Source of the DNA: Gracilibacter sp. BRH_c7a
GTDB taxonomy: Bacteria; Bacillota; Desulfitobacteriia; Desulfitobacteriales; Syntrophobotulaceae
NCBI GenBank assembly: GCA_001516055.1
Contig: LOEZ01000019.1
Span: forward strand, 1-64,000
Reading direction: 5' to 3'
DNA: 64,000 nucleotides
The translations under genes and the position numbers were made by a program. Positions 1-14,900 of this stretch are shown here, in pieces (the stretch's first letter is position 1; the number at the start of each line of letters is the position of its first letter). Under the pieces are notes generated by a model, which was given only the letters and a program-made list of their open reading frames with translations, had not been told where the DNA came from and ran no database searches.

Positions 1-382
1 ACGCCTCTAACAGCTTTTCAGTTATAGTTAACCTTTGTTCAATAGCTTTCAGTTCTGAATTTATTTGAGCACAGTTTTTGCCACAACTTAGCTGGTCAAG
101 AATAGCTTTTTTTGCCTGTTCCATCTGGACATTCAATTCTTTTCGCATTGATATCTTTTGCAATGTATTATTTGTTTTATCGGCAAGCACTGTCTTAATT
201 TCTTCTGTGCTTAGCCCAAGTTTACGAAAAGTAGAAATTTTCTTTAAACGCTCTATATCACTTTCGCTGAAATCTCGATACCCGTTATCTAAGATATTAG
301 GAATTATCAATTTCTGTTCTGTGTAATATTCAATAGCCTTTTTTGTCAAATTTGCTATCTTACTTGCTTCATTAATCAACAT
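1..382 (-). CDS. MerR-family transcriptional regulator, C-terminal part outside the window
   Basis: A minus-strand reading frame starts at ATG 382-380 and stays open to the window edge (about 127 residues visible). It is preceded by GAGGTGAT. Residues 1-70 are a typical MerR winged helix: an N-terminal helix-turn-helix, then YYTEQKLI, NGYRDFSESDIERLKKI and FRKLGLSTEEIKTVL, followed by a lysine- and glutamine-rich dimerisation helix. Two cysteines sit in LSCGKNC, which could bind a metal or thiol, but the effector domain is cut off. The gene lies in the cassette that starts at base 548, next to attC-like site 1, so it may be a cassette-borne regulator. The family is clear; the signal sensed is unknown. 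Confidence 0.85.
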   Translation of the reverse strand, partial: MLINEASKIANLTKKAIEYYTEQKLIIPNILDNGYRDFSESDIERLKKISTFRKLGLSTEEIKTVLADKTNNTLQKISMRKELNVQMEQAKKAILDQLSCGKNCAQINSELKAIEQRLTITEKLLEA

Positions 383-542
383 ATCAATCACCTCAAAAGA
401 ATCATAAACTAGCACCCAAGGTGATAGTCAATTGTTTTTGTAAGTAAATATATTATCTTGCTTCCCGTAATCTTACAATTTCGCACTAGCTACTACAAAT
501 TCTGTAATCCGCGCAGGACGCGCGGCCTTCGCGTACGGTTTC

Positions 543-622
543 AGATAACGTCCTGCGAATTTACGAAGTCTGGTTATTACATTCATATTCTCTCAGATTT
601 TGCAAATTCGCTGTTATACGAT
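543..622 (-). repeat. attC-like site 1 (between cassettes E and F)
   Basis: Plus-strand view: AGATAACG at 543-550 and TGTTATACGAT at 612-622 are the outer boxes. The inner stem is GCGAATTT (555-562) against AAATTCGC (604-611). The apical part carries GAAGTCTGG facing TCAGATTTTG, shared with site 5. Confidence 0.75.
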
Positions 623-802
623 GGTGAGATAATCAGCTCCAAAGCCTATCTAATTATTAAAATTCCAGTACTTTCTGAGCCGTTATCCATCTTAATCTTC
701 CATCATTGTTATAAAATTTAGATAACCTCCCCAGTGTTCTCAATGCGCCCCAATTGATTTCATAAGTATTAGGAAGACTCGTATTTAGGCTTTAACATGT
801 TA

Positions 803-1351
803 CTATTTCAAATCTTTTTGCCGCTTTTCATAAGCATTACTATACATTTCAATTAGTTTGGGCCTAAATATTTCCCATTTTTCTTCAAGTTTTACCAACT
901 CGCTTCTTATTTCTTCAATTTCAGTTTTTATATGATCTGGATTACTTGAATAATAGTTCATTCTCATAGCAATATTTAGTGCTATCCTATGAATTAATAA
1001 TGTTTCATTATAGTCAAATTCTTGAACCTCATATAATTTTCCATAGTTTTGAACTAACGTTGAAGATTTCGAAGCACTATCAAAAATTCTATTAAATAAA
1101 TCCATTGATCTATGCTCAAAAATTTTATTGTGTTCATTGTAATTAAGAACTTGCATTTTACAATCATAAATAACAATGTCCAGCATATCTCTTAACAAAT
1201 TCAATGAACTAGTAAAATCATCAAATTTCTCTTCTCGGAGTGCTAGCTGATGTGAATTTTTGTTTAATTTAATAGCTAGGTAATATGAAATTAGTCCCCC
1301 TATTGCTCCACTTAATAATGCTGATATTGAAATTTCAAATGTAATTTCCAT
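803..1351 (-). CDS. hypothetical membrane-anchored protein (cassette E)
   Basis: 182 residues, starting at ATG 1351 after GGGAG five bases upstream. Residues 7-27 form one hydrophobic segment containing a glycine-rich stretch (SGAIGGLISYYLA). The rest is charged and predicted mostly helical, ending in a lysine-rich tail (YEKRQKDLK). The likely topology is a single N-terminal anchor with a cytoplasmic helical domain. No family is recognised. It is the only gene of cassette E and is transcribed towards attC-like site 1. AT-rich codon use fits its cassette neighbours but not the GC-rich methyltransferase of cassette D. Confidence 0.65.
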   Translation of the reverse strand: MEITFEISISALLSGAIGGLISYYLAIKLNKNSHQLALREEKFDDFTSSLNLLRDMLDIVIYDCKMQVLNYNEHNKIFEHRSMDLFNRIFDSASKSSTLVQNYGKLYEVQEFDYNETLLIHRIALNIAMRMNYYSSNPDHIKTEIEEIRSELVKLEEKWEIFRPKLIEMYSNAYEKRQKDLK

Positions 1352-1434
1352 TCTTACTCCCTTTCGTCCTCGCTTGTCGAATAACTGTGTTATCCGGTAC
1401 CTCAGGCTTCATGCTCTGAAATGATTATCTCCAT

Positions 1435-1519
1435 ATCGTATAACGTTTCGCCGGTTCCCGCCGCGCCCTAAACGCATTCATCATCCTCCAAGTGGCGGGA
1501 ACCGGCTGTTCTACGACGT
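1435..1519 (-). repeat. attC-like site 2 (between cassettes D and E)
   Basis: Outer boxes are ATCGTATAACG (1435-1445) and TGTTCTACGACGTAT (from 1507 in plus view). The inner stem is a perfect 13 bp: GCCGGTTCCCGCC (1450-1462) with GGCGGGAACCGGC (1494-1506). The terminal loop contains CATTCATCATCCTC, also found in site 6. Confidence 0.75.
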
Positions 1520-1638
1520 ATCGTGCCCCGTAATTCAGACAGCGCCCGGATGGCGCTGCCTTAAATATCTAGCAAACAGCACCAGCATCATAAAATAAAA
1601 ACCTTATCAAAGCTTTATAACTATGTATCGGAGAATAC

Positions 1639-2037
1639 TCACTCTATAAATGGAGTTTTGCAAACCAAACAAAAAGCTCTATGTACGCAAACAAAATTGC
1701 CACATTCTTTACAAGTCCATTTATTCTCCTCACTCCGCAAAAATGAATCAGTACCATATTGCTTTATTTGCTCAAGGTTTTCAAGCATGCTCATATGATA
1801 TTTCGTTCGATAGCGCTTATCTAACTGTTTTAACCTCCGGCAAGGGTATTTATCGCATTCAAAGCAAAATCCTGATTTATTGCTTTGAATTACAGAACAG
1901 TTTTTGATTATGCATCTGACCCTAAGGTCTATCTCAATCCGACACCCTTTGCAATGATTTTTCTCCCTTTGGTTACCTAAGCAAAGTCTGCAATTCATAC
2001 CACAAGGAGCAATCAATTCTTCTTTCATTTTGTTCAT
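1639..2037 (-). CDS. DUF3795 cysteine-rich protein (cassette D)
   Basis: About 132 residues with the DUF3795 cysteine pattern: PCGMNCRLC, CKGC, C and C spaced through residues 30-50, then FCFECDKYPCRRLKQLDKRYRTKY. A second zinc-ribbon-like set follows near the C-terminus (CKEC then CLVC). The cysteine clusters suggest zinc or an iron-sulfur cluster, but no biochemical role of the family is established that I can state. Two earlier in-frame starts exist (2049 GTG, 2046 ATG) but lie too close to the GAGGAG ribosome site, so ATG 2037 is preferred with moderate certainty. The gene is AT-rich and next to attC-like site 2, so it behaves as a cassette gene. Confidence 0.75.
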   Translation of the reverse strand: MNKMKEELIAPCGMNCRLCLGNQREKNHCKGCRIEIDLRVRCIIKNCSVIQSNKSGFCFECDKYPCRRLKQLDKRYRTKYHMSMLENLEQIKQYGTDSFLRSEENKWTCKECGNFVCVHRAFCLVCKTPFIE

Positions 2038-2176
2038 CTCATACATCACTCCTCAGAATATAATAATGACGCATCATTCTGCTGTTACGAAAAATCCGGC
2101 TGCCACAAAGAAATACCTTAATCCCATTTCGTACGCGCCATGGACGGCGCTCCCCCAGGTAGTTCCAGTTGTTGCA

Positions 2177-2209
2177 CATTATAAGAATTTTACGACGCAT
2201 TATAAGAAT
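2177..2209 (+). repeat. 12 bp direct repeat, possible decayed cassette junction
   Basis: CATTATAAGAAT occurs at 2177-2188 and again at 2198-2209, separated by TTTACGACG. That spacer resembles the R''-side TTCTACGACG of site 2. It may be what is left of an attC between the DUF3795 and methyltransferase genes, or chance. Confidence 0.3.
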
Positions 2210-2217
2210 ACAAAAGT

Positions 2218-3045
2218 TTACCGGGCTCTGAGTTGCCAGAAAGCCACTGCGCTTGCTGCAGCAACATTCAGCGAGTCCACGTTATGGGACATGGGGATAC
2301 GCGCGGTGTAATCACAGTGGGCTACCGTGTTGGGTGCCAGTCCATTACCTTCTGTACCCAGTATGATAGCAAGCTTTTCATGGGCCATGAGCTGCGGATC
2401 GTCTATGCTGACAGCGGTATCACTTAAAGCCATGGCAACGGTCTTAAAGCCCAGCTTGCGCAGACTCTCCATGCCCGGCTGCGGCCACTGTGAGGGCTCG
2501 CTGCCAATACGGGCCCATGGCACTTGGAAGATAGTTCCCATGCTCACCCTCACCGCACGCCGGCACATTGGGTCACAGCATGAGGGGGTAAGCAGCACGG
2601 TATCGATGCTTAGTGCCGCAGCCGAGCGAAAAATAGCACCGACGTTGGTAGAGTCCGCAATACCTTCAAGCACAGCCACTCGACTTGCACCAGCACACGC
2701 CTCCTCAACGCTGGGTAGATGAGGACGACGCATGGCACAAAGCACACCTCGGGTCAGCTGAAAGCCGGTCAGCCTTGCTAGCAGGTTACTATCGGCAGTA
2801 TAGACAGGGATATCTCCGCAGCGGGTGATTATACCTTGCGCCTGCCCTGCAATGTATTTGCGCTCCATCAAAAGCGAAATAGGCTCACATCCAGCGTCGA
2901 GGGCAAGTCCAATTATCTTAGTACTCTCCGCAATAAAGATGCCCATCTCCGGCTCCAAACGGTTGCGCAACTGCGTTTCCGTCAGGCGAGCAAAGACATC
3001 CAAATTGGGCGATGAAAAGTCGCTTATCTCAATGATGTTTGACAT
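2218..3045 (-). CDS. TrmH/SpoU-family RNA 2'-O-methyltransferase (cassette D)
   Basis: 275 residues, ATG at 3045 after AAGGGGAT. It has an N-terminal substrate-binding domain (residues 1-110, FIAESTKIIGLALDAG) and then the SPOUT knot: motif 1 GIADSTNVGAIFRSAAAL near 130, motif 2 LAIILGTEGNGL near 225 and motif 3 IPMSHNVDSLNVAAASAVAF near 250. These bind AdoMet and the ribose 2'-OH of rRNA or tRNA. The exact target nucleotide cannot be told. Base composition is clearly more GC-rich than every neighbouring cassette gene, which points to a different donor. It sits at the start of cassette D, next to attC-like site 3. Some members of this family give resistance to ribosome-targeting antibiotics, but nothing here proves that. 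Confidence 0.85.
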   Translation of the reverse strand: MSNIIEISDFSSPNLDVFARLTETQLRNRLEPEMGIFIAESTKIIGLALDAGCEPISLLMERKYIAGQAQGIITRCGDIPVYTADSNLLARLTGFQLTRGVLCAMRRPHLPSVEEACAGASRVAVLEGIADSTNVGAIFRSAAALSIDTVLLTPSCCDPMCRRAVRVSMGTIFQVPWARIGSEPSQWPQPGMESLRKLGFKTVAMALSDTAVSIDDPQLMAHEKLAIILGTEGNGLAPNTVAHCDYTARIPMSHNVDSLNVAAASAVAFWQLRAR

Positions 3046-3136
3046 CTTATCCCCTTATGTTTTCTCTCAGTATATAGTACGAAATTATGTTCTCGTCTAA
3101 ATCCCGCCATGGACGGCGGGTGGTCTCGCAGGAAAT

Positions 3137-3218
3137 GTCATATAACGTCCCGGCAGTTCCCGAAGCGTCATAATACATTCATCTATTCTAAGTTTTGGGA
3201 ACTGCCTGTTATGTAAAG
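3137..3218 (-). repeat. attC-like site 3 (between cassettes C and D)
   Basis: ATATAACG and TGTTATGTAAAG are the outer boxes. The stem is GGCAGTTCCC (3152-3161) with GGGAACTGCC (3197-3206). An unpaired G then precedes AA/TT pairing, like the extrahelical base of known attC sites. Confidence 0.75.
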
Positions 3219-3273
3219 TCGCGCGCCCTCAGAACCAGAGGCCGACAGGACGTCGGTCCCTTGAATCCTACAT

Positions 3274-4236
3274 TTATTTTAGGGCGTTCAAACTATTCAT
3301 AGTATCTATGCCTTTTTCAGTTAATTCAATCATTTCTGTGCCTTTTTTATCAACAAAGCTCTTAATTAATCCTAATTGAGTATATTGATTTTTAACAACT
3401 AGTGCTTGTTGTCGGTCAACGTAATACCCATCTACAAACGCACTAACTGCATCAATAAAGTCTTGCGCCTCATGTCGTCCAGTCAACCTTAGAGATATAA
3501 ATTTATATAATTCGTCAAGCGTAGTCTCAATATCTTTCTCATGCGTAACTGTATTAGATGTAAAAACATAATGTATTTCTGTATAATGTAACTTTATTTT
3601 GAAACCATAAAACGGTAGTTCACTATCTACTTCAGCAATAGAATTTATTGAGTATTCACTGACTTGCTTTTGTAAGATATCATTTTGCTTTTTTAGTTCA
3701 ATAATTTGCTTTAGCAATTCATTTTGATCATATTCTCCACCACGTTGCCATCCGGGTCTATTTATTTCTTGTTTTGCTCTCATAATAGATATCGCCACTT
3801 TTCCAACTAGATCACTACTATCTTTCCAAAGACTTGCAAGGCGATTACGCATAGCACGGCTTTTAAACTCTGCTAATTTTCCATTTTTAATAGCATCTGT
3901 CTCTTTTTTCGATGGATCTAATTCTACTGAATCATCAATACTAAACACTAACACGGGAACACCTTTTGATATTGCATAATCATATTCCATCTCAGTATAA
4001 CTACGATCAGTTGCTTCGTTAATTGACCCATATCTACCTCCAATAATAAGAATATAATAATCACATAAGTCAATAACTTTTTTTATGACATTAAATTGTT
4101 CTTCATCAGTAGCAACAAAAGCTTCCATACCTGAGGGAATACAATCTGCCATTAGAAGCAAGTCCAATACTTTTTTTCGTTCATCAAATAAATCTTTAAA
4201 TGTTGAGCTTATGAATACTTGATATTTTTTATCCAT
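3274..4236 (-). CDS. DUF4062 domain protein, possible defence or signalling protein (cassette C)
   Basis: 320 residues, starting at ATG 4236 (MDKKYQVF) with GGAG six bases upstream; an upstream ATG at 4248 has no room for a ribosome site. Residues 4-110 are a DUF4062 domain: VFISSTFKDLFDERKKVLD, then IIGGRYGSI and SYTEMEYDYAISKGVPVLVF. This is a TIR-like flavodoxin-fold domain often found at the N-terminus of multi-domain signalling or anti-phage proteins. A short coiled coil (NELLKQIIELKKQNDILQKQ) links to a C-terminal half with a winged-helix-like end (residues 240-320). No NACHT or other ATPase follows. A defence role is inferred from family habits and from its place as a mobile cassette. 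Confidence 0.75.
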   Translation of the reverse strand: MDKKYQVFISSTFKDLFDERKKVLDLLLMADCIPSGMEAFVATDEEQFNVIKKVIDLCDYYILIIGGRYGSINEATDRSYTEMEYDYAISKGVPVLVFSIDDSVELDPSKKETDAIKNGKLAEFKSRAMRNRLASLWKDSSDLVGKVAISIMRAKQEINRPGWQRGGEYDQNELLKQIIELKKQNDILQKQVSEYSINSIAEVDSELPFYGFKIKLHYTEIHYVFTSNTVTHEKDIETTLDELYKFISLRLTGRHEAQDFIDAVSAFVDGYYVDRQQALVVKNQYTQLGLIKSFVDKKGTEMIELTEKGIDTMNSLNALK

Positions 4237-4385
4237 ATTTTTCTCCATCCTTAAAATTTATTATTATTATTATTAAATGGATTAACCCAGATTTTATACC
4301 ATTGTCTATGCACATGTAATTACCACAAAATCACAAGGACTTTCACATTTAATCCGCCGCAGGACGCGGCGGCTTCGCGCGCGAT

Positions 4386-4467
4386 TTTATATAACGTTCT
4401 GAGCACTCCCGCAGCGTCATACTACTTGCATATTGGCAAAGTTGCGGGAGTGCTCTGTTCTACGAAG
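4386..4467 (-). repeat. attC-like site 4 (between cassettes B and C)
   Basis: ATATAACG (plus view) and TGTTCTACGAAG frame a perfect 13 bp stem: GAGCACTCCCGCA (4401-4413) with TGCGGGAGTGCTC (4443-4455). The loop starts GCGTCAT, as in sites 3 and 6. Confidence 0.75.
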
Positions 4468-4590
4468 TGGGGGGACCCGCGGAGCCAGAGACGGCCACGG
4501 ATGGCCGTCCACCAGACAATCACTAACCGATAATGTACAGAATATTAACATTATGAAGTTAAACGTCTTCTGATAATGCTTATAATATAC

Positions 4591-4911
4591 CTAACCCCAA
4601 ATCATTGATGGGAACACTAAATATAGAAAACAAGTCGCCATTACACAAATAATAAAAAAAGCAATTGAAAAGTATTTAAAATCTGTAAACTTGTAAATTA
4701 GGAAACTAGCTAACCCCATAATAATAGTATAAGATAATGGAATTAAAATCATATTTATATGTGTTGTAAAATTGATAAATTCTGCTATGGTATAATTTTT
4801 ATCTCCCTTTAGAACTTCTAGAGCAAAAAAGAAATACTGTACAATGAATAAAGCATTAACAATAATAGAAGAAAATACTCCCAATATAATTTGCATTGTC
4901 TTTTTTAGCAA
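4591..4911 (-). CDS. small integral membrane protein (cassette B)
   Basis: 106 residues starting at TTG 4911, eight or so bases after an AAAGGGGGGAT ribosome site. Three or four hydrophobic segments are visible: residues 5-33, 50-70 and 75-103, with few charges in between. No signal peptide cleavage or known motif is seen. It is the only gene in cassette B. Cassette arrays often carry such small membrane proteins of unknown role. The TTG start and lack of relatives I can recall keep confidence moderate. Confidence 0.6.
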   Translation of the reverse strand: MLKKTMQIILGVFSSIIVNALFIVQYFFFALEVLKGDKNYTIAEFINFTTHINMILIPLSYTIIMGLASFLIYKFTDFKYFSIAFFIICVMATCFLYLVFPSMIWG

Positions 4912-5039
4912 TTATATATCCCCCCTTTACTTGGATAAAAAAATAATCTTTAGTTTGACTTACTAACCAATCGCCATAATTAAAACTCCAGCCTCGCCCA
5001 CTAAATTGGCGCAAGGATGCGCCAGCCTATTGCCCCCCA

Positions 5040-5123
5040 TTTCGTAGAACGGTTCGCGTGTTACCGAAGTCTGGTTACTACTTTCATATTCTCTCAGATT
5101 TTGGTAACACGCTGTTATCGGAT
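5040..5123 (-). repeat. attC-like site 5 (between cassettes A and B)
   Basis: TTCGTAGAACG and TGTTATCGGA frame GCGTGTTACC (5056-5065) paired with GGTAACACGC (5103-5112). The apical GAAGTCTGG and TCAGATTTTG arms are nearly identical to site 1, although the variable stems differ. Confidence 0.75.
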
Positions 5124-5188
5124 GGGTGAGGCCCCCCGAAGCCAGAGTGCGACAGGACGTCGCACCCTTGAACTCTCCGTAATTATAA

Positions 5189-5848
5189 CTATTGAACTTC
5201 ATTTAGTGCTTCAAGACGATCATATAAATAATGAGTCGATATATTATATAAATTATCTCCGATTTCTCTAAATCGCTCTATAATATTCTCCAGATCTATT
5301 ACCACATTGTCGAATTCATCTATATAAAAATGATTAATATGTTTCTGACTAAAAGGATATCTTGCAAAATCCATATTATCTTTAAATTTCCCGCTTGAAT
5401 TATCTCCAATTTTAGCGAATAATTCTTCAATATATTTTCTTAAATTTAGAGTTAACTTCTTGAATTGCTCTCTTCTCTCCCGTTCCTCCTCGAACTCATT
5501 TACTCTTGAACAAACAACATGGAATATTTGCTTGATATTATGTTCACCTTCGATTTTCATATCTTTCTCTAAAAGAATATTTAATGTCCATGTAATTGCT
5601 TTTAAGTATAGCTCTATTGCATGATTAGCATTAAACAGTATTGGAAAAATAACTATATCAGCTTTCTTATCCCAATTATCGGCCAGTACTTGTTCTCCGA
5701 GTAATATTGAAGACCTCATAAATCCTCGCGCTATTGTAATCATGTTGCTAATATGTGAATGTTTATTTGTTCTCCAATTTAGATATGCATTCTTATTAAT
5801 ATCTATATTGTAAGAGAATACATCCTTCATTTTTGTCTCTCCATTCAT
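5189..5848 (-). CDS. HEPN-like hypothetical protein (cassette A)
   Basis: 219 residues from ATG 5848 (MNGETKMKDVF) with AGGAAG upstream. A longer frame to 5932 runs through the GGA hairpin and attC-like site 6 and is therefore not the true start. The protein is helical. The segment FPILFNANHAIELYLKAI (about residues 64-81) resembles the HEPN-type signature of a helical bundle that packs against a nucleotidyltransferase or acts as an RNase in abortive-infection and toxin systems. The canonical RNase motif R-x4-6-H is not obvious, so catalytic activity is doubtful. The C-terminal half is a long charged helix with FEEERERREQFKKLTLNLRK. HEPN assignment is tentative. Confidence 0.6.
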   Translation of the reverse strand: MNGETKMKDVFSYNIDINKNAYLNWRTNKHSHISNMITIARGFMRSSILLGEQVLADNWDKKADIVIFPILFNANHAIELYLKAITWTLNILLEKDMKIEGEHNIKQIFHVVCSRVNEFEEERERREQFKKLTLNLRKYIEELFAKIGDNSSGKFKDNMDFARYPFSQKHINHFYIDEFDNVVIDLENIIERFREIGDNLYNISTHYLYDRLEALNEVQ

Positions 5849-5899
5849 AATTTCTTCCTTGCCAATCCGCCGCAGGACGCGGCGGTCTTGCCTCATCTT

Positions 5900-5981
5900 T
5901 CCGATAACGTCCTCGGATTTCCGCAGCGTCATTACACATTCATCATCCTCTAAGTTGCGGTAAATCCGTTGTTAGCCGAAG
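5900..5981 (-). repeat. attC-like site 6 (upstream edge of cassette A)
   Basis: CCGATAACG and TTGTTAGCCGAAG frame CGGATTTCCGCA (5914-5925) paired with TGCGGTAAATCCG (5956-5968), with one bulged base. Because this is a full attC hairpin and not an attI, the cassette that owned it (higher coordinates) has been lost or truncated. The DNA beyond 5985 shows no further site. Confidence 0.7.
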
Positions 5982-6232
5982 TTTTCCCGTGCGTGTGAGA
6001 AAACTCATGCACAATTAATAGAATAATTTCATATTATGCAATAATTTCCGTTATTAATCTAATAGAACTTTTTTACTAATGTTTTTAGGTTCCACTTCCG
6101 ATATTTTATAATAAGGAAATAAATAAGATTGATGTGGTACTGAAGGCGAGTATTTGGGTATAATAATAAAACAATTGTTATAATTGAAATTCAATGTTAA
6201 AATATTATTGTATAAGTAAAGGAGAGAATCAT

Positions 6233-6484
6233 ATGAGTGAAAATATTCAAGATATTGACTATCAATGGTTTCTTGAAAATTATTCTGAACTTTTTGCTAA
6301 ACATGGTGTTTCATATTTAGCAATAAAAAACAAAACTATTCTTGGCGTATATGAATCATATGCTGATGGAGTTAGAAGTGTAAGTAATAAGGAAAAGCCA
6401 GGAACTTTTATTGTTCAAAATTGTAATGGTAATGAATCGGCTTATACAAACTATATTGCATCAACAAACTTTTTTAAACAATAA
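6233..6484 (+). CDS. small conserved protein paired with a retropepsin-like gene
   Basis: 83 residues from ATG 6233 with AAAGGAGAG upstream; the frame opens earlier at 6194 but without a ribosome site. The sequence (DYQWFLENYSELFAKHGVSY then AIKNKTILGVYESYADGVRS and GTFIVQNC) has the look of the small DUF5678-like alpha/beta proteins that describe self-modification or surface roles poorly. It is 34 bases before the retropepsin-like gene on the same strand, so the two are probably co-transcribed. Function unknown. Confidence 0.65.
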   Translation: MSENIQDIDYQWFLENYSELFAKHGVSYLAIKNKTILGVYESYADGVRSVSNKEKPGTFIVQNCNGNESAYTNYIASTNFFKQ

Positions 6485-6518
6485 AGATATTTGAAATAAA
6501 AGGTTGAGGTTCATACTA

Positions 6519-7019
6519 ATGCAAAATGGAACTCCAGAATTTCGTGCTTTCACCATGTCAAGCAGTATACTTGTAAACCGACTTGTTAGTGATGCTACTG
6601 TAGTATTCGGAGAAAATAAATTAGTAGTTAAAGCATTATGGGATACGGGTGCTACTGGCACTTGTATTTCAGCAGAAGTTGTTCAAAAATTATCATTGAT
6701 TCCAACTGGAAAGAAAAATATTTGTACACCATCTGGCACTAAAGAAGTGAATACATATTTACTTAATATAGTTTTACCTAATAATGTTGGAATAAAAGAT
6801 GTTGAGGTTTGTGATACAGACATCGGTAATCAGGGAATTGGCATGCTTATTGGAATGGATATTATTGGGATCGGAGATTTTGCTGTAAGTAACTATAATA
6901 ATAAAACAATATTTTCTTTTAGGTATCCATCAAAACATAAAATCGATTTTGTACATGAAATCAATTTACAAAATTTAATTGGTAAAAAACATGGAAAAGG
7001 GAAAAGAAAGAAAAAGTAA
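6519..7019 (+). CDS. retropepsin-like aspartic protease domain protein
   Basis: 166 residues from ATG 6519 (MQNGTPEF), after AGGTTGAGG; a TTG at 6504 is less likely. The catalytic motif of retroviral-type aspartyl proteases is seen in ALWDTGATGTCISAEVVQKL (about residues 40-59; Asp of DTGA is the active residue). The second half holds the flap-like strands and LLIGMDIIGIGDFAVSN, matching the conserved LIGxDxL block of the fold. The C-terminus is very basic (KKHGKGKRKKK). Such proteins form dimers that cleave peptides. No signal peptide is present, so it acts inside the cell. It follows the 83-residue gene in a likely two-gene operon, a pairing that may be functional. Confidence 0.75.
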   Translation: MQNGTPEFRAFTMSSSILVNRLVSDATVVFGENKLVVKALWDTGATGTCISAEVVQKLSLIPTGKKNICTPSGTKEVNTYLLNIVLPNNVGIKDVEVCDTDIGNQGIGMLIGMDIIGIGDFAVSNYNNKTIFSFRYPSKHKIDFVHEINLQNLIGKKHGKGKRKKK

Positions 7020-7174
7020 TATAATTTGCCCTTAATTGGGTGCATATCATTTGTCTGAAAGGACGCATATAATCATGAAAAGACTTTTGAGAAATCAAGG
7101 ATCTTTTCTCATTCTATTTTAGAAAACTCCCTAATCTACTTTAGGAACACATGTAATTAAATCAATCAAAAACC

Positions 7175-7202
7175 GGAGGGCAATGCGTCCCTCCTATTTA
7201 TA
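7175..7202 (+). terminator. weak terminator-like hairpin
   Basis: GGAGGG (7175-7180) pairs with CCCTCC (7189-7194), followed by TATTTATATTTT. It lies after the retropepsin gene and just before the 53-residue gene. Confidence 0.45.
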
Positions 7203-7222
7203 TTTTATGAGGTGAATAGAGA

Positions 7223-7384
7223 ATGGAATATAAGAATATTAGATTAAAAGACCTTTATCCTCTAACAGATGAGCGAGGATATAAACGTGAAAATGATGAA
7301 TTCCACTGGCAATTTATACACGAAACTTTGCTGCGTCTGAAAGAATTAGAAAATGAAGTTGTAAGTTTAAAGAGTAGGTTATAG
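7223..7384 (+). CDS. 53-residue hypothetical protein
   Basis: A short frame from ATG 7223 to TAG 7384 with GAGGTGAAT upstream. The product begins MEYKNIRLKDLYPLTDERGY and ends in a leucine/glutamate coiled-coil-like helix (LLRLKELENEVVSLKSRL). No family recognised. Good ribosome site and amphipathic end support it as real. It converges with the 65-residue gene on the other strand, four bases away. Confidence 0.5.
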   Translation: MEYKNIRLKDLYPLTDERGYKRENDEFHWQFIHETLLRLKELENEVVSLKSRL

Positions 7385-7388
7385 TTAG

Positions 7389-7586
7389 TTACTTACTTTC
7401 TTGTTTCTTCCTCTTTTCATATTCTTCAAGGATGTCACATACAAGATTGATAGTTCTTCTGTATTCTCGTTCAATTTCTGGCATAGTTTCATACCCCTCA
7501 AAACGAGAATCTGGTATATTAACTTTCATGCCCTTAACTTCAATTTTTGCATTCATCATATCTTCTTTTAACTGCTTAAAGTCCAT
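7389..7586 (-). CDS. 65-residue hypothetical protein
   Basis: Starts at ATG 7586 after a strong GGAGGGAGGTG site. Highly charged: MDFKQLKEDMMNAKIEVKGM then a helix ending EEYEKRKKQESK. It is probably a small cytoplasmic protein. No family recognised. The ribosome site is the main support. Confidence 0.5.
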   Translation of the reverse strand: MDFKQLKEDMMNAKIEVKGMKVNIPDSRFEGYETMPEIEREYRRTINLVCDILEEYEKRKKQESK

Positions 7587-7669
7587 ACTTTCACCTCCCT
7601 CCTACTTTAGCATCTTCTTAAAAACAGAGCAGTATTAGAATACTTGGGTGAAAATTTTGTTCAACGTCT

Positions 7670-7735
7670 TTTACCCGCTGAAAAGTTGCGGGTAAAGTCA
7701 AATTTTAAATGGTATACCCGCATGGGTTGCGGGTA
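7670..7735. repeat. two tandem hairpins built on ACCCGC/GCGGGT
   Basis: TTTACCCGC (7670-7678) pairs with GCGGGTAAA (7688-7696). A second unit, TACCCGC (7715-7721) with GCGGGTA (7729-7735), follows 19 bases later. The stretch 7587-8174 otherwise has no gene that I can support. Confidence 0.6.
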
Positions 7736-8012
7736 AATTACCTTTATCACAATGGCTATCATATTCTTTGCACTAGCCGATTACTTTTTTATTTGATATT
7801 CGTGAAATATCTCTGCTATCCTTCTAAAAAATCGAAGTATGTGGAAATTAATTCTAAAAATAACAAAGAAGCCCTTTGCCGGAAAAGGCCCCTTAATATA
7901 TTCTCTATCATTTTAATTCTTCATTGTTAGGCGGCCACAAAGCTTTTTAGCGGGCTGCTAAAAATGCAAATTCATATAATACTATTACCGGTAATCAGGC
8001 AGAAGATGAGAT

Positions 8013-8055
8013 GGGGGCAAGACCGCCGGAGAATCCTGATCGGCGGCTCGCCCCC
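8013..8055. other. strong GC hairpin in a gene-free stretch
   Basis: GGGGGC (8013-8018) pairs with GCCCCC (8050-8055), and inside it CCGCCG pairs with CGGCGG around GAGAATCCTGAT. The right arm is followed by TCTCTTAATATTTTAT, so it could end plus-strand transcription, but no gene precedes it closely. It could also be a structured RNA or part of a remnant element. Confidence 0.45.
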
Positions 8056-8174
8056 TCTCTTAATATTTTATGCCGGCACTGCCCGCTTACGCTTGCGGAG
8101 AATCATAAAGGTCATCGGTGGTTGTGAAGGTTGAAAGTACATACTATGGCTGTGCTTGCCCAAAGGTTCCGAAA

Positions 8175-8948
8175 TCAGGAATTAACGCGAAGCGGCTTCT
8201 TGGGCGGCGGCCACTCTTTAATTGTCTTTGTCATGTATTCGATCAGCCGGTTAGCTTCTTTTCTTTTTTCTTCTTTCAGCTCCGGATCGATATGGGTTAG
8301 ATTGGTGAGTGCTGTCGTTAGATCGAAGAAGGTATCGGCGATAGTTTTGCAGCAAGCGTCACATTGTTTTACATACTTGATGTGAGCGTGGGGATCACGT
8401 TTGGTTTTAAGGTTGTGGGTCGGCAGGGCGGTTTGACCGGCAGAGGGGGCTATAGCGGTAGAGGAGGCTTGTGCTTGGATATTTTCCGGATTCACCGGCC
8501 TTGACGGAGCCTTAGCCTGGTCCTTCGCCTGATTGGCCTGGTCTCTGTCCTTAAGAGCCTGCTGCAGCTCCTGTTTGGTCATACTGCTGACATCATTCTG
8601 GGCGATGAATTCCTTCCGTTCCTCTTCCGGTAAACGTAGCAGGAGGAGGGCTTGGGTGTAGGTCAAATGGGACACTGGTGTCCCATTTGACCTGTCAGAT
8701 CCTTCAGGGAAGTCAGGCCCATATTCTTTGTAGATCTTCATCAGCCTGGAGGCAGTTCGACGAGTATAGTCCACCGACTCTTCTATCCACTCGATCCATT
8801 CTCCGTGTTTGAGCATGACCTTGGCTTCCTGCAAACGACGGCCGATTTCAATGGCACTGATAAGCAGGATTTTTCTGGTTTGGCAGGTTATCATATTTAT
8901 TTCAGCCGCAATGACTAGCGGCGTGCGTTCGAAGGTCGGATTATCCAT
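8175..8948 (-). CDS. DUF3102 domain protein
   Basis: 257 residues, ATG 8948. Residues 1-75 match the DUF3102 pattern: ISAIEIGRRLQEAKVMLKHG then EWIEWIEESVDYTRRTASRL, a ParB/KorB-like helical DNA-binding-type domain often found on mobile DNA. A helical region with LLRLPEEERKEFIAQNDVSS follows, then an alanine/proline/glutamine-rich linker (residues 130-180), and a C-terminal helical part with CDACCKTIADTF and EEKRKEANRLIEYM. It is encoded alone, in DNA richer in GC than the flanks. DUF3102 genes commonly sit in plasmid or integrated-element cargo, so 8-9 kb may be a remnant of another element. Confidence 0.75.
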   Translation of the reverse strand: MDNPTFERTPLVIAAEINMITCQTRKILLISAIEIGRRLQEAKVMLKHGEWIEWIEESVDYTRRTASRLMKIYKEYGPDFPEGSDRSNGTPVSHLTYTQALLLLRLPEEERKEFIAQNDVSSMTKQELQQALKDRDQANQAKDQAKAPSRPVNPENIQAQASSTAIAPSAGQTALPTHNLKTKRDPHAHIKYVKQCDACCKTIADTFFDLTTALTNLTHIDPELKEEKRKEANRLIEYMTKTIKEWPPPKKPLRVNS

Positions 8949-9013
8949 ACCGCCTGTCCTTTCATATTTGGTCTAATTACAGCATATGCAGATGGGCTTC
9001 GGAGGGTGAGGGC

Positions 9014-9063
9014 TAAAAAAAAAGTTCGGCTTAATAGGACATCTTATCCTATCAAGCCGAACT
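9014..9063 (-). terminator. terminator of the mtnP-mtnA operon
   Basis: Read on the minus strand, AGTTCGGCTT pairs with AAGCCGAACT (9054-9063 and 9023-9032), an inner GATAGGA/TCCTATT stem sits in the loop region, and a run of nine T follows (the A-tract 9015-9023). Confidence 0.85.
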
Positions 9064-9083
9064 CATTCTTCAATAGTTAATTA

Positions 9084-10118
9084 CTATTTCACCATCATTT
9101 TTACCAGATTCACCGAATAAGGCGGGGAAATAATCCCTTTTTCTGTAACTATTCCGGTAATATATTTGGAGGGCGTAATATCAAAGGCGGGATTATATAC
9201 GTCTACTTCCTCCGGAACTATTCTTATACCCGCGAAGAATCTAACTTCAGCACCGTCTCTTTCCTCCACCGTAACTTCCGCACCACTGGAGATCTTCAGA
9301 TCAATAGTTGAGGTTGGAGCGGCTACATAAAAAGGTATCTCATGAGCAAAAGCCAGAACAGCCAGAGCATAAGTTCCTATCTTATTTGCTGTATCGCCAT
9401 TGGCAGCGATTCTGTCTGCACCAACTATAACCATGTCAATCTTACCTTGCTGCATAAGGTATCCAGCTGTACTATCCGTAATAAGGGTATGCGGAATCTT
9501 CTCTTGTAAGAGTTCCCAAGCCGTTAAGCGGGCACCTTGTAAAACAGGCCTGGTCTCTCCGGCATAGACATGAATTTTCTTGCCTGAAGATTGGGCTGTT
9601 CGGATTATCCCCAAAGCTGTTCCATATTCTGCTGTAGCAAGAGCCCCCGTATTACAGTGGGTCAAGATGTTAGCTTTGTCAGTAACTACCTCATTCCCGT
9701 ATTCTCCAATCAGCTTGTTCATTTTTCGGTCGTCCTCAGAAATGGCATGGGCTTCTTCTAAGAGTCCTTCCGATATTTTCTCTCTATCTTCTAAGTCTTG
9801 TAATTCTCGATATTTATTTTCCATTCTCCTCAGAGCCCAGAAAAGGTTCACAGCTGTAGGACGTGTTCCCTCCAATACTATCCGAACTTCTTTTAGGTGT
9901 TCACTGAGGTCTTCATCTTTTCCTTGGTATTCCAAAGCACCTAAGACAAAGCCATAGGCCGCGGCTGCACCGATAGCTGGAGCTCCACGGATTTCCATTT
10001 TTTTAATAGCGTCGGCTACATCCAGATAGGACTCAGCTTTCCTAAATTGTTGTTCAAACGGTAGCCTGGTTTGATTGAGTATAAGCAGGTGATTCCCCTG
10101 CCATTCAAGCGCTTTCAC
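9084..10118 (-). CDS. mtnA: S-methyl-5-thioribose-1-phosphate isomerase
   Basis: Isomerises methylthioribose-1-phosphate to methylthioribulose-1-phosphate in methionine salvage. 344 residues from GTG 10118 (AAAGGCGGAAAG upstream). The frame continues to 10172 but that would overlap mtnP and add residues absent from the family. Motifs: MEIRGAPAIGAAAAYG near residue 45, THCNTGALAT (catalytic Cys) near 155, DSTAGYLM near 210 and VGADRIAANGDTANKIGTY (catalytic Asp) near 225. It belongs to the eIF2B-like fold family. It lies 19 bases after mtnP in the same operon. No mtnK, mtnW, mtnX or mtnB is in the window, so the later salvage steps must be elsewhere or different. Confidence 0.92.
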   Translation of the reverse strand: MKALEWQGNHLLILNQTRLPFEQQFRKAESYLDVADAIKKMEIRGAPAIGAAAAYGFVLGALEYQGKDEDLSEHLKEVRIVLEGTRPTAVNLFWALRRMENKYRELQDLEDREKISEGLLEEAHAISEDDRKMNKLIGEYGNEVVTDKANILTHCNTGALATAEYGTALGIIRTAQSSGKKIHVYAGETRPVLQGARLTAWELLQEKIPHTLITDSTAGYLMQQGKIDMVIVGADRIAANGDTANKIGTYALAVLAFAHEIPFYVAAPTSTIDLKISSGAEVTVEERDGAEVRFFAGIRIVPEEVDVYNPAFDITPSKYITGIVTEKGIISPPYSVNLVKMMVK

Positions 10119-10137
10119 GTATTCTTTCCGCCTTTCT

Positions 10138-10920
10138 CTAAAACAAGCCTGCTTCTTTATTACTGGTCGCACAGTAACATTTTTGTTCTTTGTTTAAAAG
10201 GGTACAGGTGTTCTCGACTAACTTGGCTACTGTTTCACCTAATACGTTCATAGTATCTATAACTTCGGCATGTGTCAACGGTTGGTTGATTATTCCGGCA
10301 GCAGCATTGGTCACAAGTGCTATGGTTGCATAACACATACCTAGTTCCCTAGCCAATACAACTTCAGGTACCCCAGTCATTCCAACCAGTTCTCCGCCTA
10401 GCATTCTGAACATTTTAATCTCCGCAGGAGTCTCAAAGCGGGGACCTTCGGTACAAACATATACACCGCTGGTCTTAATATTTAAATTTATATTTTGAGC
10501 TGCTTGGGTTATGATCTCTCTTAAATCCGGGCAGTAGGGTTGAGATACATCTACATGAAGGACACCTTGTTCCCCACCTTCATAGAAAGTCTGTGTCCTA
10601 TTCTTCGTAAAATCTAAAAATTGGTCTATAAGAGTTACTTCACCTACTTGGAAATTCGAGCAAAGAGAGCCGACTGCTCCTGTAGCCAGTATTCTTTTTA
10701 CTCCTATTTGTTTTAGTGCCCAAATATTTCCTCTATAATTTATTCGATGTGGAGGCACAGTGTGTCCTTCTCCATGCCTTTTAAGAAAGGCCATTTCTGT
10801 ACCATTGACATCTGCAACGTTTATATTAACAGTTCCATAAGGAGTCTCTATATCTAAATTTTCTTTATGCTGAAATCCAATCTGCTGGACGCCTGTTCCT
10901 CCGATTAGTGCTAAATCCAA
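10138..10920 (-). CDS. mtnP: methylthio-purine nucleoside phosphorylase (MtnP family)
   Basis: 260 residues. Phosphorolysis of a 5'-methylthionucleoside to methylthioribose-1-phosphate, the substrate of the next enzyme, MtnA. Motifs: LIGGTGV (phosphate, residue 5), KRHGEGH, ATGAVGS, CTEGPRFETPAE near 155 and GMTGVPEVVLARE near 180. In the base-recognition loop the sequence is VTNAAAGI, with Asn where adenine-specific enzymes have an Asp (TDYD). This favours a 6-oxopurine substrate such as methylthioinosine, as in some archaeal and Pseudomonas enzymes; the annotation as strict MTA phosphorylase is therefore uncertain. It overlaps no gene and follows ftsY by 18 bases. Confidence 0.85.
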   Translation of the reverse strand: MDLALIGGTGVQQIGFQHKENLDIETPYGTVNINVADVNGTEMAFLKRHGEGHTVPPHRINYRGNIWALKQIGVKRILATGAVGSLCSNFQVGEVTLIDQFLDFTKNRTQTFYEGGEQGVLHVDVSQPYCPDLREIITQAAQNINLNIKTSGVYVCTEGPRFETPAEIKMFRMLGGELVGMTGVPEVVLARELGMCYATIALVTNAAAGIINQPLTHAEVIDTMNVLGETVAKLVENTCTLLNKEQKCYCATSNKEAGLF

Positions 10921-10938
10921 AACTATTCCTCCTTTAGC

Positions 10939-11850
10939 TTAAGCAAAAAGAGCATCAGCAAATTCTTGGGGGACAAAAGGTCTTAAATCATCCAGTCCCT
11001 CTCCAATGCCAATAAGTTTAACGGGAACTTTTGCTTCTCTTTGGATACCTAAGACTACACCTCCTTTTGCTGTCCCATCAAGTTTGGTGAGGATAATCCC
11101 TGTAACATCGACAGCTTCTTGGAAAAGTTTTACCTGCTGAATAGCATTTTGACCTGTCGTAGCGTCCAACACAAGCAGGACTTCATGTGGACCGGAAGGC
11201 ACTTCACGCTCGATAACCTTTTTAATTTTACTTAACTCTTTCATTAAATTGACTTTATTGTGTAACCTGCCTGCAGTATCGATTAAAAGAACATCTATAT
11301 TCCTGGATTTTACGGCCTGCAGCGCATCATAAGCGACGGCTGCTGGATCAGCTCCTTCAGATTGCCTAATTACTCCTACGCCTGAACGCTGTCCCCATAT
11401 CTCCAGTTGTTCACTGGCTGCAGCTCTAAAAGTATCTCCTGCGGCCAAAAGAACACTTTTGCCTTCTGACTGTAGACTTTTGGCCAGTTTACCTATCGTT
11501 GTAGTTTTTCCAACCCCGTTAACCCCAACTATGAGATATACCGTTGGTTCTTTTTCCGCAAAATGCAAGGGATTCTCTTCTCCTAACAAAAGTGTAATCT
11601 GCTCTTTCATCTCATCTTTGAGCAAGACAGGATCAGAGATTTTCTTTTCTTTTACGGACTTGCGCAGCATCTCAATTATTTCCAATGTAGTATTTACCCC
11701 TACATCCGACTGGATCAACACTTCTTCCAGTTCTTCATAAAGATCTTCATCGATCTTGCCGGCACCGGTGAATATTCCTTCTACCTTCTCTATGAAACCC
11801 TTACGAGTTTTGCCTAACTTATCTTTAAGTTTGCTAAATAATCCCGCCAA
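10939..11850 (-). CDS. ftsY: signal recognition particle receptor FtsY
   Basis: 303 residues. SRP-GTPase that docks ribosome-nascent-chain-SRP complexes at the membrane. It holds the N domain (residues 20-90, helical) and G domain with G1 GVNGVGKTTTIGKLA near 110, DTFRAAASEQLE, G3 DTAGRL and G4 TKLDGTAKGG. The acidic A domain of longer FtsY proteins is missing; a short amphipathic start MAGLFSKLKDKLGK serves as the membrane contact, as in many Firmicutes. It is downstream of smc in the usual rnc-smc-ftsY order. Confidence 0.95.
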   Translation of the reverse strand: MAGLFSKLKDKLGKTRKGFIEKVEGIFTGAGKIDEDLYEELEEVLIQSDVGVNTTLEIIEMLRKSVKEKKISDPVLLKDEMKEQITLLLGEENPLHFAEKEPTVYLIVGVNGVGKTTTIGKLAKSLQSEGKSVLLAAGDTFRAAASEQLEIWGQRSGVGVIRQSEGADPAAVAYDALQAVKSRNIDVLLIDTAGRLHNKVNLMKELSKIKKVIEREVPSGPHEVLLVLDATTGQNAIQQVKLFQEAVDVTGIILTKLDGTAKGGVVLGIQREAKVPVKLIGIGEGLDDLRPFVPQEFADALFA

Positions 11851-11962
11851 TTTTTATTCGCTCCTTATTTACTTCTATTGCCAAGTTCATACGTATAAAC
11901 AATCCTTGTTCAATAAAACTTGTTCATAAGAAATTCTAGCATATTACGTCTACTGTCACAAA

Positions 11963-14900
11963 TTAAGCGCTCACTGAGTCATCCAAATTATCTTCCAGCT
12001 CTACCGCTAACAGTTTAGAGACACCTGATTCTTCCATGGTTATTCCGAAAAGCCAATCAGCAGATTCCATGGTACCTCTACGGTGAGAGATTAGGATAAA
12101 CTGGGTAGAGTGTGAGAGCCTATGTAAATATTTTACAAACCGTCTAACATTCGTCTCATCTAGAGCTGCTTCAATCTCGTCAAGGAGACAGAAAGGGCTA
12201 GGTTTAACTTTGAGGAATGCAAATAACAAGGCTATGGCAGTAAATGCTCTCTCTCCACCTGAGAGCAGAGAAAGCTGCTGTGCCTTCTTTCCAGGCGGTT
12301 GAGCAATAATCCTTACCCCTGTATCCAATAAGTTCTCCGGATCATCAAGCTGCAGTTCAGCAAATCCACCATTAAACAGCTCTTTAAACACTCCTTGGAA
12401 CGCTTCATTAACCGCTCTGAACCCTTCCTCAAAGCGTTCAATCATATTCTTATCCAAATCATTAATAAGCTGTTGAAGAGACTTGCTTGCTTCTACCAGA
12501 TCATTGCGTTGGGAACTAAGGAAGTCAAAGCGTTTTACTGTCTCTGGATATTCTTCCAAAGCTGTATAATTTACGGGGCCAAGTTCCTCTATTTGCTGTT
12601 TGAGAAGAGAAACACGTTCTTGGAGGAGGTCTTTCTTATCTTCAGTAATAAAGCTCGCTGCTCTATCCCAAGGTAGGCTATATTCCTCTTCTAGTCTAAT
12701 ACATCCATTCTCCCATTCGGCTTGCCAGCGGGCAACACGAAGTTCATTCTGGTGGATTTGTTGTTCCATATCTTTAGCTTTACGACGCATTATCTGAAGT
12801 TCCTCTTCCTTGCGGATTGTATCGGAAGAAAGAAGTTCTTTCTCTTTACGCAACTCAACAAGGGACAACCTTTTTTCATCCAAGTACTTGGTCGATTCCT
12901 GGATGTTTTTTTCGGCTTCGTCTTGACCGCGAATTAATTCTTGTTCAGAACTTTCGAGATTAACCAATTCAGCTTGTTTCTCCCCGATGGAATTCTCGAT
13001 TAATTGATGGCGATTATTCTCTTCGTCAATTAATTGACTAGTTTGCTCAAATTCCTGCTCCCATCTTGCCGATTCTACTTTGGAAGCTGTTATTTGGTCA
13101 GTTACTTTCTGTACTTCAGCAGCAGTCTCTTCCACTACTCTTTCCAATTCTTGTTGTTGGTTCTGTAAATGAACAATCTCTGCTTCCACTTCTTTAACAA
13201 GCATATTTTTATCTTCTGCCAAAGACCAAAGTTCCTTAAGCTGCTTATCTGCTTCGTCTAATTCATATTTTTGCACCTTAATGTCTTCTTCAATCCGCTT
13301 AATTCCTTCTTCTTTATGTTTTCTTTCAACAGCAATTATTCTCTTAGCTTCACTAGATTCTTTTATTTCCTCATTCATTTTTAATTGATACTTATTAAGC
13401 TCTTCCAGTTCACTCTTCCAGGTCATTCCCTCTTGTTTTTTCTTTTCCAATTGGTCTTTCATATCAGAGATATTAAGTGTAATATCCTCTATCTCTCTCG
13501 TTCTCCCTAAAAGTCCGGAATTCTGGCCTCTAATACTGCCGCCTGTGAGAGAGCCGCCTACATTTACCTGATCCCCTTGAAGCGTAACCACTCTCACTCG
13601 ATAATTATTTGCTTTAGCCAGTTCGATAGCAGCATCCATATTTGTGGCAATTAAGATCCTGCCTAACAGGGATTCCATAACACTCGTGAACTTTTTGTCA
13701 AACTTGATTAAATCAACCGCTAGGCCTTCAAAACCTTTGTTATTGTTTATCTGTTGTAAAGGATGTCTATTCCCCTTAATCGCATCTAGCGGCAGAAAAG
13801 TTGCTCTGCCATTATTGGTTTTTTTCAGGTAGTCTATACACTTTTTGCCGTCTTCTGTTGTTTCTACGATAATATTCTGAAGAGCACTACCGAGTGCTGT
13901 TTCAATAGCAAGTTCATACTTCTCTTCGACTTCGATATTCTCAGCCACTATTCCGTACATACCTTGACATTTTATCTGTCCATGACGGTTGGCGAAAATG
14001 ATTTCCTTAACACCCTTATGATATCCGTCCAGATTCTCTTCAAGTGCCTTAAGAGCATGTAATCTAGCACTTGCTTGATCAATCTTCCTGAGCAAGTTGG
14101 TGTATGATTCTTCCATCAATACGAATTCTTTATTCTTGGCTTCTATTTTCCGTTTAGTCTCTTCGATTTTTCCTGTAATTTCTTTTTCTTTTGCTTCGAT
14201 TGCTTTTATATCTTCTTCTTGTTGTTGAATAAAATCAAGTAAGGAATCTCTTTCTTGTTCTTTGATTTTAATTTCGTCAGTTAACTGACTCTGTTGTCTC
14301 TGATAGGAAGATTTTTTATGCTCGATCTCCGCAATATCGTTGGAAAGCCTGCTTTTTTTAGATAGGACTTCAAATCTCTCTGTCTTTAAGTCTTCTAGTT
14401 GCTTCCCACCGCTTATAGAACGTAATTCTATTAAATGAGCTTCACGTTCCTCAAGGGCTTTGGTTGCTTGTTCGAGGGTATCTTGAAGAAGCTTCTTCTT
14501 GTCCTTAAGATTAGCAATCTTTTGTTGAGATTCTACTAATCTTTCTTGAGATGTCAGGATTTCTTTCTGCAGACGTCCTACCTGATCTTTAACAAACCCT
14601 TGTCTTTCTGACATCAAAGAGAGTTCATGTGTTTCTTCTTTAACGTTGTTCTCCAAAAGGTAAACTTCTCCTTGCAGATCTTGTACCCTTTGCTCAAGCT
14701 GATTAAGTTCATATTTATTTCTGATACTTTTATTCTCTTCTTCAGTATTCCGGGTCGTTATGATAGTGAATTCCGTATTTAGGTCCTCTAAATTCTTCTC
14801 TACTTTGATTAATTTACTATTTGTTTCCGCTAATTCATTAACCATTAGAGTTATTTCTGTGGCTTCCAATTCTTTGTTTAAAGATTGACTTTGCTGAGCT

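What the first reader, a model, noticed from the sequence alone, without database searches (positions are those of the whole stretch)
3274..4236. DUF4062 protein as a stand-alone cassette, possible anti-phage effector
DUF4062 is a TIR-like domain frequent in anti-phage STAND proteins. Here it is joined to a coiled coil and a winged-helix-like tail without an ATPase, in one cassette. Together with the HEPN-like neighbour it suggests that the array stores defence genes.
Basis: inference. Interest (0 to 1): 0.65.

Follow-up and report, generated by a model that had tools for sequence, protein, structure and literature searches.

The report
Integron-borne Swarozyc-type DUF4062 phage-defence gene
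A gene parked in a large mobile-gene array of an anaerobic, probably clostridial, bacterium encodes a close relative of the recently described 'Swarozyc' proteins, which detect an infecting phage and kill the cell by destroying NAD+; the protein type is known, but finding it as a cassette in an integron-like array of a group thought to lack integrons is new.

Summary
An intact gene (3274-4236, minus strand, 320 aa, GGAG ribosome site) encodes DUF4062 (Pfam E=8e-28), a stalk helix and a winged C-terminal domain, with no ATPase. It is the only gene between two attC-type sites (cassette about 3146-4394).

The only solved relative is KpSwz, the phage-portal-activated NADase 'Swarozyc' (PDB 10wc; preprint PMC13174449). 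A profile of 45 full-length relatives matches KpSwz end to end (E=1.8e-111). The window's E84 aligns with KpSwz catalytic E97 and is invariant in all 45. AlphaFold gives a TIR-like fold, stalk and winged AUX domain. Relatives sit inside type I restriction operons. The AUX hairpin tip lacks the W-Y pair that touches the Bas14 portal, so the trigger probably differs. Function was not tested.

So the protein is a new member of a known kind, and its architecture is common rather than unusual. The context is more surprising. The cassette belongs to a set of 59 attC sites in this genome, with further defence-like cassettes. The attC type occurs in 54 of 74 genomes of the order. No canonical IntI was found, but an IntI/Xer-like recombinase stood at the array head in all seven relatives examined.

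The parts
3146..4394 (-). cassette unit, from the expected cut G|TT in the upstream attC to that in its own attC
   Evidence: attC core AACG at 3144 and 4393 on the + strand; boundaries inferred from the attC rule
3274..4236 (-). DUF4062 gene, 320 aa plus stop (ORF can be extended to 4248 by an in-frame ATG)
4243..4246 (-). GGAG ribosome-binding-like site, 6 nt before the ATG at 4236
   Evidence: sequence
3766..4236 (-). TIR-like DUF4062 domain, residues 1-157
   Evidence: Pfam, AlphaFold, Foldseek TIR hits
3985..3987 (-). codon of predicted catalytic Glu84 (= KpSwz E97)
   Evidence: alignment with PDB 10wc construct E97A and 45 homologs
3643..3726 (-). stalk helix / coiled coil, residues 171-198
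   Evidence: AlphaFold; KpSwz stalk alignment
3277..3624 (-). auxiliary (AUX) domain, residues 205-320: beta-hairpin 213-239 and winged helix 240-317
   Evidence: AlphaFold; profile match to KpSwz AUX; hhalign 98.2%
3136..3219 (-). attC of this cassette
   Evidence: covariance model 94.3 bits, covariation
4385..4468 (-). attC of the preceding cassette (5' boundary)
539..624 (-). attC
1434..1519 (-). attC
5040..5125 (-). attC
5898..5982 (-). attC, last one before the chromosomal flank
803..1351 (-). neighbouring cassette gene, membrane-anchored helical protein
1639..3045 (-). neighbouring cassette with two genes: DUF3795 (1639-2049) and SpoU-type RNA methylase (2218-3045)
4591..4911 (-). neighbouring cassette gene, small membrane protein
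5189..5932 (-). neighbouring cassette gene, weak HEPN-like (Pfam E=0.057)

Best explanation
It is a Swarozyc-type single-protein anti-phage system carried as one cassette of an integron-like array. The DUF4062 domain is a TIR-like NADase held inactive in dimers and oligomers through the stalk helices. The C-terminal hairpin plus winged AUX domain is the sensor: it binds a ring-shaped phage structural protein (the portal in KpSwz). [quoted passage not shown] The cell stops growing or dies before phage are released (abortive infection). The gene moves between bacteria and within the array by recombination at its attC. Shown here: gene, domains, conserved Glu, end-to-end homology to KpSwz, predicted fold, attC boundaries. 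Inferred from the family: NADase activity, autoinhibition, portal-type trigger, abortive infection. Not shown: expression, protection, identity of the trigger.
For: KpSwz (10wc/11cq/11cv) is the only PDB relative, E=6e-44 for the single sequence over residues 5-199 of the 324-aa ORF. A 45-member full-length profile matches KpSwz over positions 2-329 of 331, E=1.8e-111. The catalytic KpSwz E97, mutated to A in the PDB construct, aligns with window E84, which is invariant in 45 of 45 relatives. C-terminal domains alone: clostridial set including the window protein vs proteobacterial set, hhalign probability 98.2, E=4.8e-14. KpSwz is linked to the proteobacterial set by phmmer, E=7e-88, through its AUX. 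AlphaFold pLDDT 89.5 with TIR-like domain, stalk, hairpin and winged helix, matching the published KpSwz layout of stalk, 'HTH/winged' AUX and hairpin anchor (PMC13174449). Foldseek top hits are TIR domains, and the winged protein Sso10a-2 matches 76-79 alignment columns at rmsd 1.9-2.0. Relatives lie inside defence operons: hsdM-hsdS-DUF4062-PDC-S02-hsdR (L034), HsdR directly after (L035), HsdS directly before (L036, L045), type III methylase directly after (L039). Patchy distribution: of 60 relatives in the order, only two have a convincing match (E<1e-30), at 36-46% identity over about 200 residues.
Against: No activity was tested. KpSwz tip residues W238-Y239, which contact the Bas14 portal, have no aromatic pair at the equivalent hairpin tip here (tip FTSNT), and AUX identity is low, so the trigger may not be a portal. 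Promoter-like matches near the gene are no more frequent than chance, so the cassette may be silent where it stands. The HEPN-like neighbour and the other cassettes in the window give little independent support for defence.
Confidence: 0.78

Rival explanations
1. Same fold and defence role, but the TIR-like domain makes a signalling nucleotide from NAD+ for a partner effector (Thoeris-like) rather than depleting NAD+.
For: Many TIR domains do so; the preprint notes DUF4062 genes in operons with other enzymes (PMC13174449); a type I restriction operon surrounds several relatives.
Against: The window cassette holds only this gene, with no partner between its attC sites; KpSwz and TEP1 released ADP-ribose and nicotinamide, and TEP1 gave no further ADP-ribose derivatives (PMC13174449).
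Confidence: 0.08
2. The cassette is a silent, stored copy: an intact defence gene that is not expressed at this position and works only when the array is reshuffled.
For: Most cassettes of large chromosomal integrons are not expressed (abstract of PMC11023631); sigma-70-like matches in the array are near the shuffled mean, 32 vs 24.3 +/- 4.6.
Against: The gene has its own ribosome site and about 150 bp of A+T-rich leader with a 9-of-12 promoter-like match at 4320-4291. Compatible with the best explanation as regards mechanism.
Confidence: 0.35
3. DUF4062 here is a non-catalytic or nucleoside-processing (deoxyribosyltransferase-like) domain with a housekeeping or regulatory role, the winged domain binding DNA.
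For: Foldseek also lists 2-deoxyribosyltransferase and DNPH1 folds and a DNA-binding winged protein; human NWD1, NWD2 and NPHP3 DUF4062 proteins showed no NADase activity (PMC13174449).
Against: The catalytic Glu is invariant in all 45 relatives and the whole protein matches active KpSwz; relatives are patchy and sit in restriction operons, not in conserved housekeeping loci.
Confidence: 0.08
4. It is an addiction or toxin-type gene that stabilises the array rather than a phage-defence gene.
For: The array holds toxin-antitoxin-like cassettes on the opposite strand (PemK- and RelE-type).
Against: No antitoxin partner in the cassette; it lies in the common cassette orientation; KpSwz without portal was inactive and needed no antitoxin (PMC13174449).
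Confidence: 0.05

Closest known systems
Swarozyc, KpSwz from Klebsiella pneumoniae (PDB 10wc, 11cq, 11cv; PMC13174449)
   Same: TIR-like DUF4062, stalk helix and C-terminal hairpin plus winged AUX domain in one polypeptide of about 330 aa; catalytic Glu; full-length profile match E=1.8e-111.
   Different: About 40% identity in the first 195 residues and low identity in AUX; no W-Y pair at the hairpin tip; carried as an integron-type cassette in a clostridial order, where the preprint speaks of defence islands and does not mention integrons.
DUF4062-NACHT/STAND proteins (human TEP1, NWD1; bacterial STAND)
   Same: DUF4062 domain.
   Different: No NACHT or other ATPase here; the sensor is a winged AUX domain, not repeats.
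Thoeris, SPARTA and TIR-STING
   Same: TIR fold and NAD+-based defence (Foldseek hits).
   Different: No Ago/APAZ, STING or Thoeris partner; different dimer interface reported for KpSwz (PMC13174449).
Defence cassettes of sedentary chromosomal integrons (Darracq et al. 2025, Science, eads0768, seen only as cited in PMC13064858)
   Same: Single defence gene between attC sites in a large chromosomal array.
   Different: Clostridial order in which complete integrons are reported as extremely rare (PMC9024848); no canonical IntI found.

Membership tests
Swarozyc (DUF4062 antiphage NADase) | DUF4062/TIR-like domain with conserved catalytic Glu | tested here: met
   Pfam E=8e-28; E84 = KpSwz E97, invariant in 45 of 45; TIR fold
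Swarozyc (DUF4062 antiphage NADase) | helical stalk followed by HTH/winged AUX domain homologous to KpSwz AUX | tested here: met
   Profile covers KpSwz 3-325; hhalign of C-terminal domains E=4.8e-14; model
Swarozyc (DUF4062 antiphage NADase) | hairpin tip residues W238-Y239 that bind the Bas14 portal | tested here: not met
   Hairpin 213-239 present, tip FTSNT; a trait of one member, not clearly of the family
Swarozyc (DUF4062 antiphage NADase) | NAD+ hydrolysis triggered by a phage protein, and abortive infection | not testable with these tools
   needs biochemistry and phage assays
DUF4062-STAND/NACHT proteins | ATPase module (NACHT/STAND) next to DUF4062 | tested here: not met
   No ATPase match at E up to 1 in Pfam
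Integron gene cassette | single gene flanked by attC sites with conserved AAC...GTT core and a paired stem | tested here: met
   Six window sites, 59 in the genome; 96.6% paired cells, 197 two-sided changes vs 58 +/- 9 in shuffles
Integron gene cassette | canonical R-box consensus (RYYYAAC / GTTRRRY) | tested here: inconclusive
   AAC/GTT present in most sites; flanking bases are mostly GTTATNN/GTTCTAC rather than GTTRRRY, some GTTAGGC
Complete integron | IntI integrase with its additional domain | tested here: not met
   No TIGR02249 match over cut-off in own genome or in 60 relatives (that search rang in no control genome). Array-head recombinases match TIGR02249 only at 3-180 and 230-315

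The most novel reading that the evidence does not exclude
The DUF4062 cassette is cargo of an unrecognised, order-wide class of chromosomal integrons in a clostridial order (Desulfitobacteriales, judged from memory of genome sizes). Its attC sites are lineage-specific and its integrase is a Xer/IntI-like tyrosine recombinase that lacks the IntI-specific insertion, stands upstream of the array on the same strand and can carry an N-terminal extension. The array banks Swarozyc and other defence genes.
Probability: 0.5. Interest if true: 0.8.

Novelty: new member of a known kind. Interest (0 to 1): 0.5.

Why it matters
It shows that a very recently described NAD+-depleting defence protein travels as a single-gene integron-type cassette in anaerobic Firmicutes, far from the Enterobacteria in which it was tested. 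It offers a divergent sensor domain whose trigger can be compared with the KpSwz-portal pair. The array itself, if its recombinase is confirmed, would mean that a group held to lack integrons carries large defence-gene banks run by a different integrase.

Tried and rejected
STAND/NACHT origin: no ATPase found. PADLOC 2023: no model hits the protein, which is expected because the DUF4062 system was described in 2026. Rfam: no attC or other family above chance in 1-12000. Phage collection: only distant matches in one Acinetobacter phage group, so no sign of a phage-borne origin. Tyrosine recombinases of C58, C78, C33 and C61 were first taken for IS passengers because of a neighbouring IS91-type transposase; later comparison with relatives made an array-head role more likely for the C58 type, while the C78/C61 type travels with the transposase. 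None of the 80 fetched relatives of the protein lies next to R1-type attC, so the cassette form is not general for the family.

Full report
OBSERVATION. The window is the first 64 kb of contig C19 (263 kb) of a 4.1-Mb, 98-contig genome. The ORF 3274-4248(-) exists and is intact. Its best start is the ATG at 4236: GGAG stands six bases upstream and relatives begin at the same residue. Pfam finds DUF4062 (E=7.8e-28) and nothing else above cut-off, in particular no ATPase. It is the only DUF4062 gene in the genome.

CASSETTE. Six near-identical hairpin sites of about 85 nt (539, 1434, 3136, 4385, 5040, 5898) separate the genes from 1 to about 6000, all on the strand of the genes. A covariance model built from these six finds 53 more in the same genome, on 13 further contigs (59 in all). 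On the 59 sites the stem is paired in 96.6% of cells, with 197 two-sided changes against 58 +/- 9 in shuffled controls; sliding the partner by one column drops pairing to about 40% (the alignment is fitted to the model, so the counts lean towards it). The ends carry the AAC/GTT cores of attC, though the flanking bases are mostly not the textbook GTTRRRY. Two contigs, C19 and C89, begin or end in the same MerR cassette: they are 99.3% identical up to C19 position 568, inside the attC, and differ beyond it. This is what moving cassettes would produce. The DUF4062 cassette runs from about 3146 to 4394 and holds this gene alone. G+C of neighbouring cassette genes ranges from 26 to 55%, as expected for genes of different origin.

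WHAT THE PROTEIN IS. The only PDB relative is KpSwz (10wc, 11cq, 11cv), E=6e-44. A preprint of May 2026 (PMC13174449) shows that DUF4062 is a TIR-like NADase, that KpSwz protects E. coli by NAD+ depletion and abortive infection, that E97 is catalytic, and that its C-terminal HTH/winged AUX domain, through a hairpin anchor, binds the phage portal ring. A profile of 45 full-length relatives matches KpSwz over its whole length (E=1.8e-111). The solved construct carries E97A; the mutated position aligns with window E84, which is invariant in all 45. Because 45 relatives could carry the AUX match on their own, the C-terminal domains were compared separately: the clostridial set containing the window protein matches the proteobacterial set with probability 98.2 and E=4.8e-14, and a proteobacterial member matches KpSwz into AUX at E=7e-88 overall. 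The AlphaFold model (pLDDT 89.5, pTM 0.55) has a TIR-like domain, a stalk helix, a beta-hairpin and a winged helix. Foldseek finds TIR domains first and a winged DNA-binding protein for the tail (the KpSwz entries did not appear among the matches). The low pTM means that the placing of the domains relative to each other is not to be trusted.

CONTEXT OF RELATIVES. The nearest relative (70%, L030) and most full-length ones are in Clostridia. Several sit inside restriction operons: hsdM-hsdS-DUF4062-PDC-S02-hsdR in L034, and direct neighbours of HsdR, HsdS or a type III methylase in L035, L036, L045 and L039. In 60 genomes of the same order only two have a convincing match. Patchiness and defence neighbourhood agree with the preprint's survey.

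MECHANISM. Shown here: domains, conserved catalytic residue, fold, cassette limits. Taken from the KpSwz work: oligomer kept inactive through the stalk, activation by a ring-shaped phage protein through AUX, NAD+ hydrolysis, abortive infection. Open: the trigger. The hairpin is present but its tip (FTSNT) lacks the W-Y pair of KpSwz, so a different portal, or a different phage protein, is likely. Expression in place is uncertain.

DOES THE ARRAY STORE DEFENCE GENES? In part. Among 64 proteins taken from the cassettes and array edges of the genome are the DUF5343/HEPN-Swt1 pair matching the candidate system PDC-M34A/B (E about 1e-72 each), a C5-methylase with an unknown partner, a DUF2971 protein (PDC-S31), a RES-domain protein, PemK- and RelE-like modules and a protein kinase. 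GNAT acetyltransferases, methyltransferases, a polysaccharide deacetylase, a thioesterase and small membrane proteins are also there. PADLOC matches to general ATPase, kinase and HTH-M78 families were not counted as evidence of defence. No enrichment test against the rest of the genome was made.

BEYOND THE FINDING. The same attC type is found in 54 of 74 genomes of the order and in 0 of 9 genomes of another order of the class. No canonical IntI was found in 61 genomes; the strict search rang in no control genome, so it does not by itself prove absence. At a looser threshold, the best TIGR02249 matches in seven well-assembled relatives lie 0.7-4.5 kb upstream of attC sites, on the same strand, match on both sides of the IntI-specific region but not across it, and resemble XerA/XerC-like proteins and IntI4. 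In the window genome (C58) and in G003 the recombinase lies beside genes that look like nrdG and nrdD (naming from sequence recall). Literature in reach reports one complete integron in Firmicutes and a few integrase-less clusters (PMC9024848).

NOVELTY. The protein is a new member of a known kind. Its carriage in an integron-type array of this group is new as far as the searches could tell: the preprint does not mention integrons, and no paper in the library combined attC, integron and Desulfitobacterium.

Noticed in passing
G000 contigs C19, C22, C53, C68, C89, C10, C78, C17, C58 and others; G003, G013, G017, G021, G027, G032, G046: Order-wide arrays of one attC type (54 of 74 genomes) without canonical IntI; in seven of seven relatives examined an IntI/Xer-like tyrosine recombinase lacking the IntI-specific stretch stands 0.7-4.5 kb upstream of the array on the same strand (one copy, in G013, is broken). 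Possible non-canonical integron class.
   Followed up: partly
C58:655-1758(-) = L025; L176:13712-14803(-): The array-head recombinases (363-368 aa) share an extra N-terminal stretch (TIKGRxWDxxKKxW...), recalling a HARP-like motif, that no Pfam model matched.
   Followed up: partly
C78:5770-7798(-) = L026; L174:4334-6344(+); L179:6789-8797(+): A second tyrosine recombinase followed by an IS91-type Y2 transposase with zinc domain lies near the array head in three genomes; a rolling-circle enzyme could supply the single-stranded DNA that attC folding needs.
   Followed up: partly
window 3100-3130, 3226-3265, 4351-4380, 4478-4515, 5000-5030, 5133-5172, 5864-5891: Short G+C-rich hairpins with a GTCC/ATCC-type loop (cassette strand) flank attC sites on both sides: 22 and 26 of 58 sites vs about 1% in shuffles. 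Function unexplained.
   Followed up: partly
window 1-568 and C89:5332-5898 (L143): The same MerR-type cassette occurs at the ends of two contigs with different upstream attC sites; homology breaks inside the attC. Cassette duplication, and probably the reason why the contigs end there.
   Followed up: yes
L140:6543-7747(+) (C22): Two-gene cassette DUF5343 + HEPN_Swt1, full-length match to candidate defence system PDC-M34A/B.
   Followed up: no
L026:822-2171(-), L143:25-537(+): Reverse transcriptases that look like group II intron proteins (identified by eye from sequence) within the cassette arrays, as known for introns that target attC.
   Followed up: no
window 6504-7019(+): Retropepsin-like aspartic protease gene just outside the array, on the other strand, with a PADLOC match to PDC-M08B (E=1e-5).
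   Followed up: no
window 1639-3045: DUF3795 gene and a 55% G+C SpoU methylase share one attC interval; a lone flanking-type hairpin near 2135 between them suggests a lost attC.
   Followed up: no
L034, L035, L036, L039, L045: Clostridial and Fibrobacteria relatives of the DUF4062 protein are nested in type I or type III restriction operons.
   Followed up: partly
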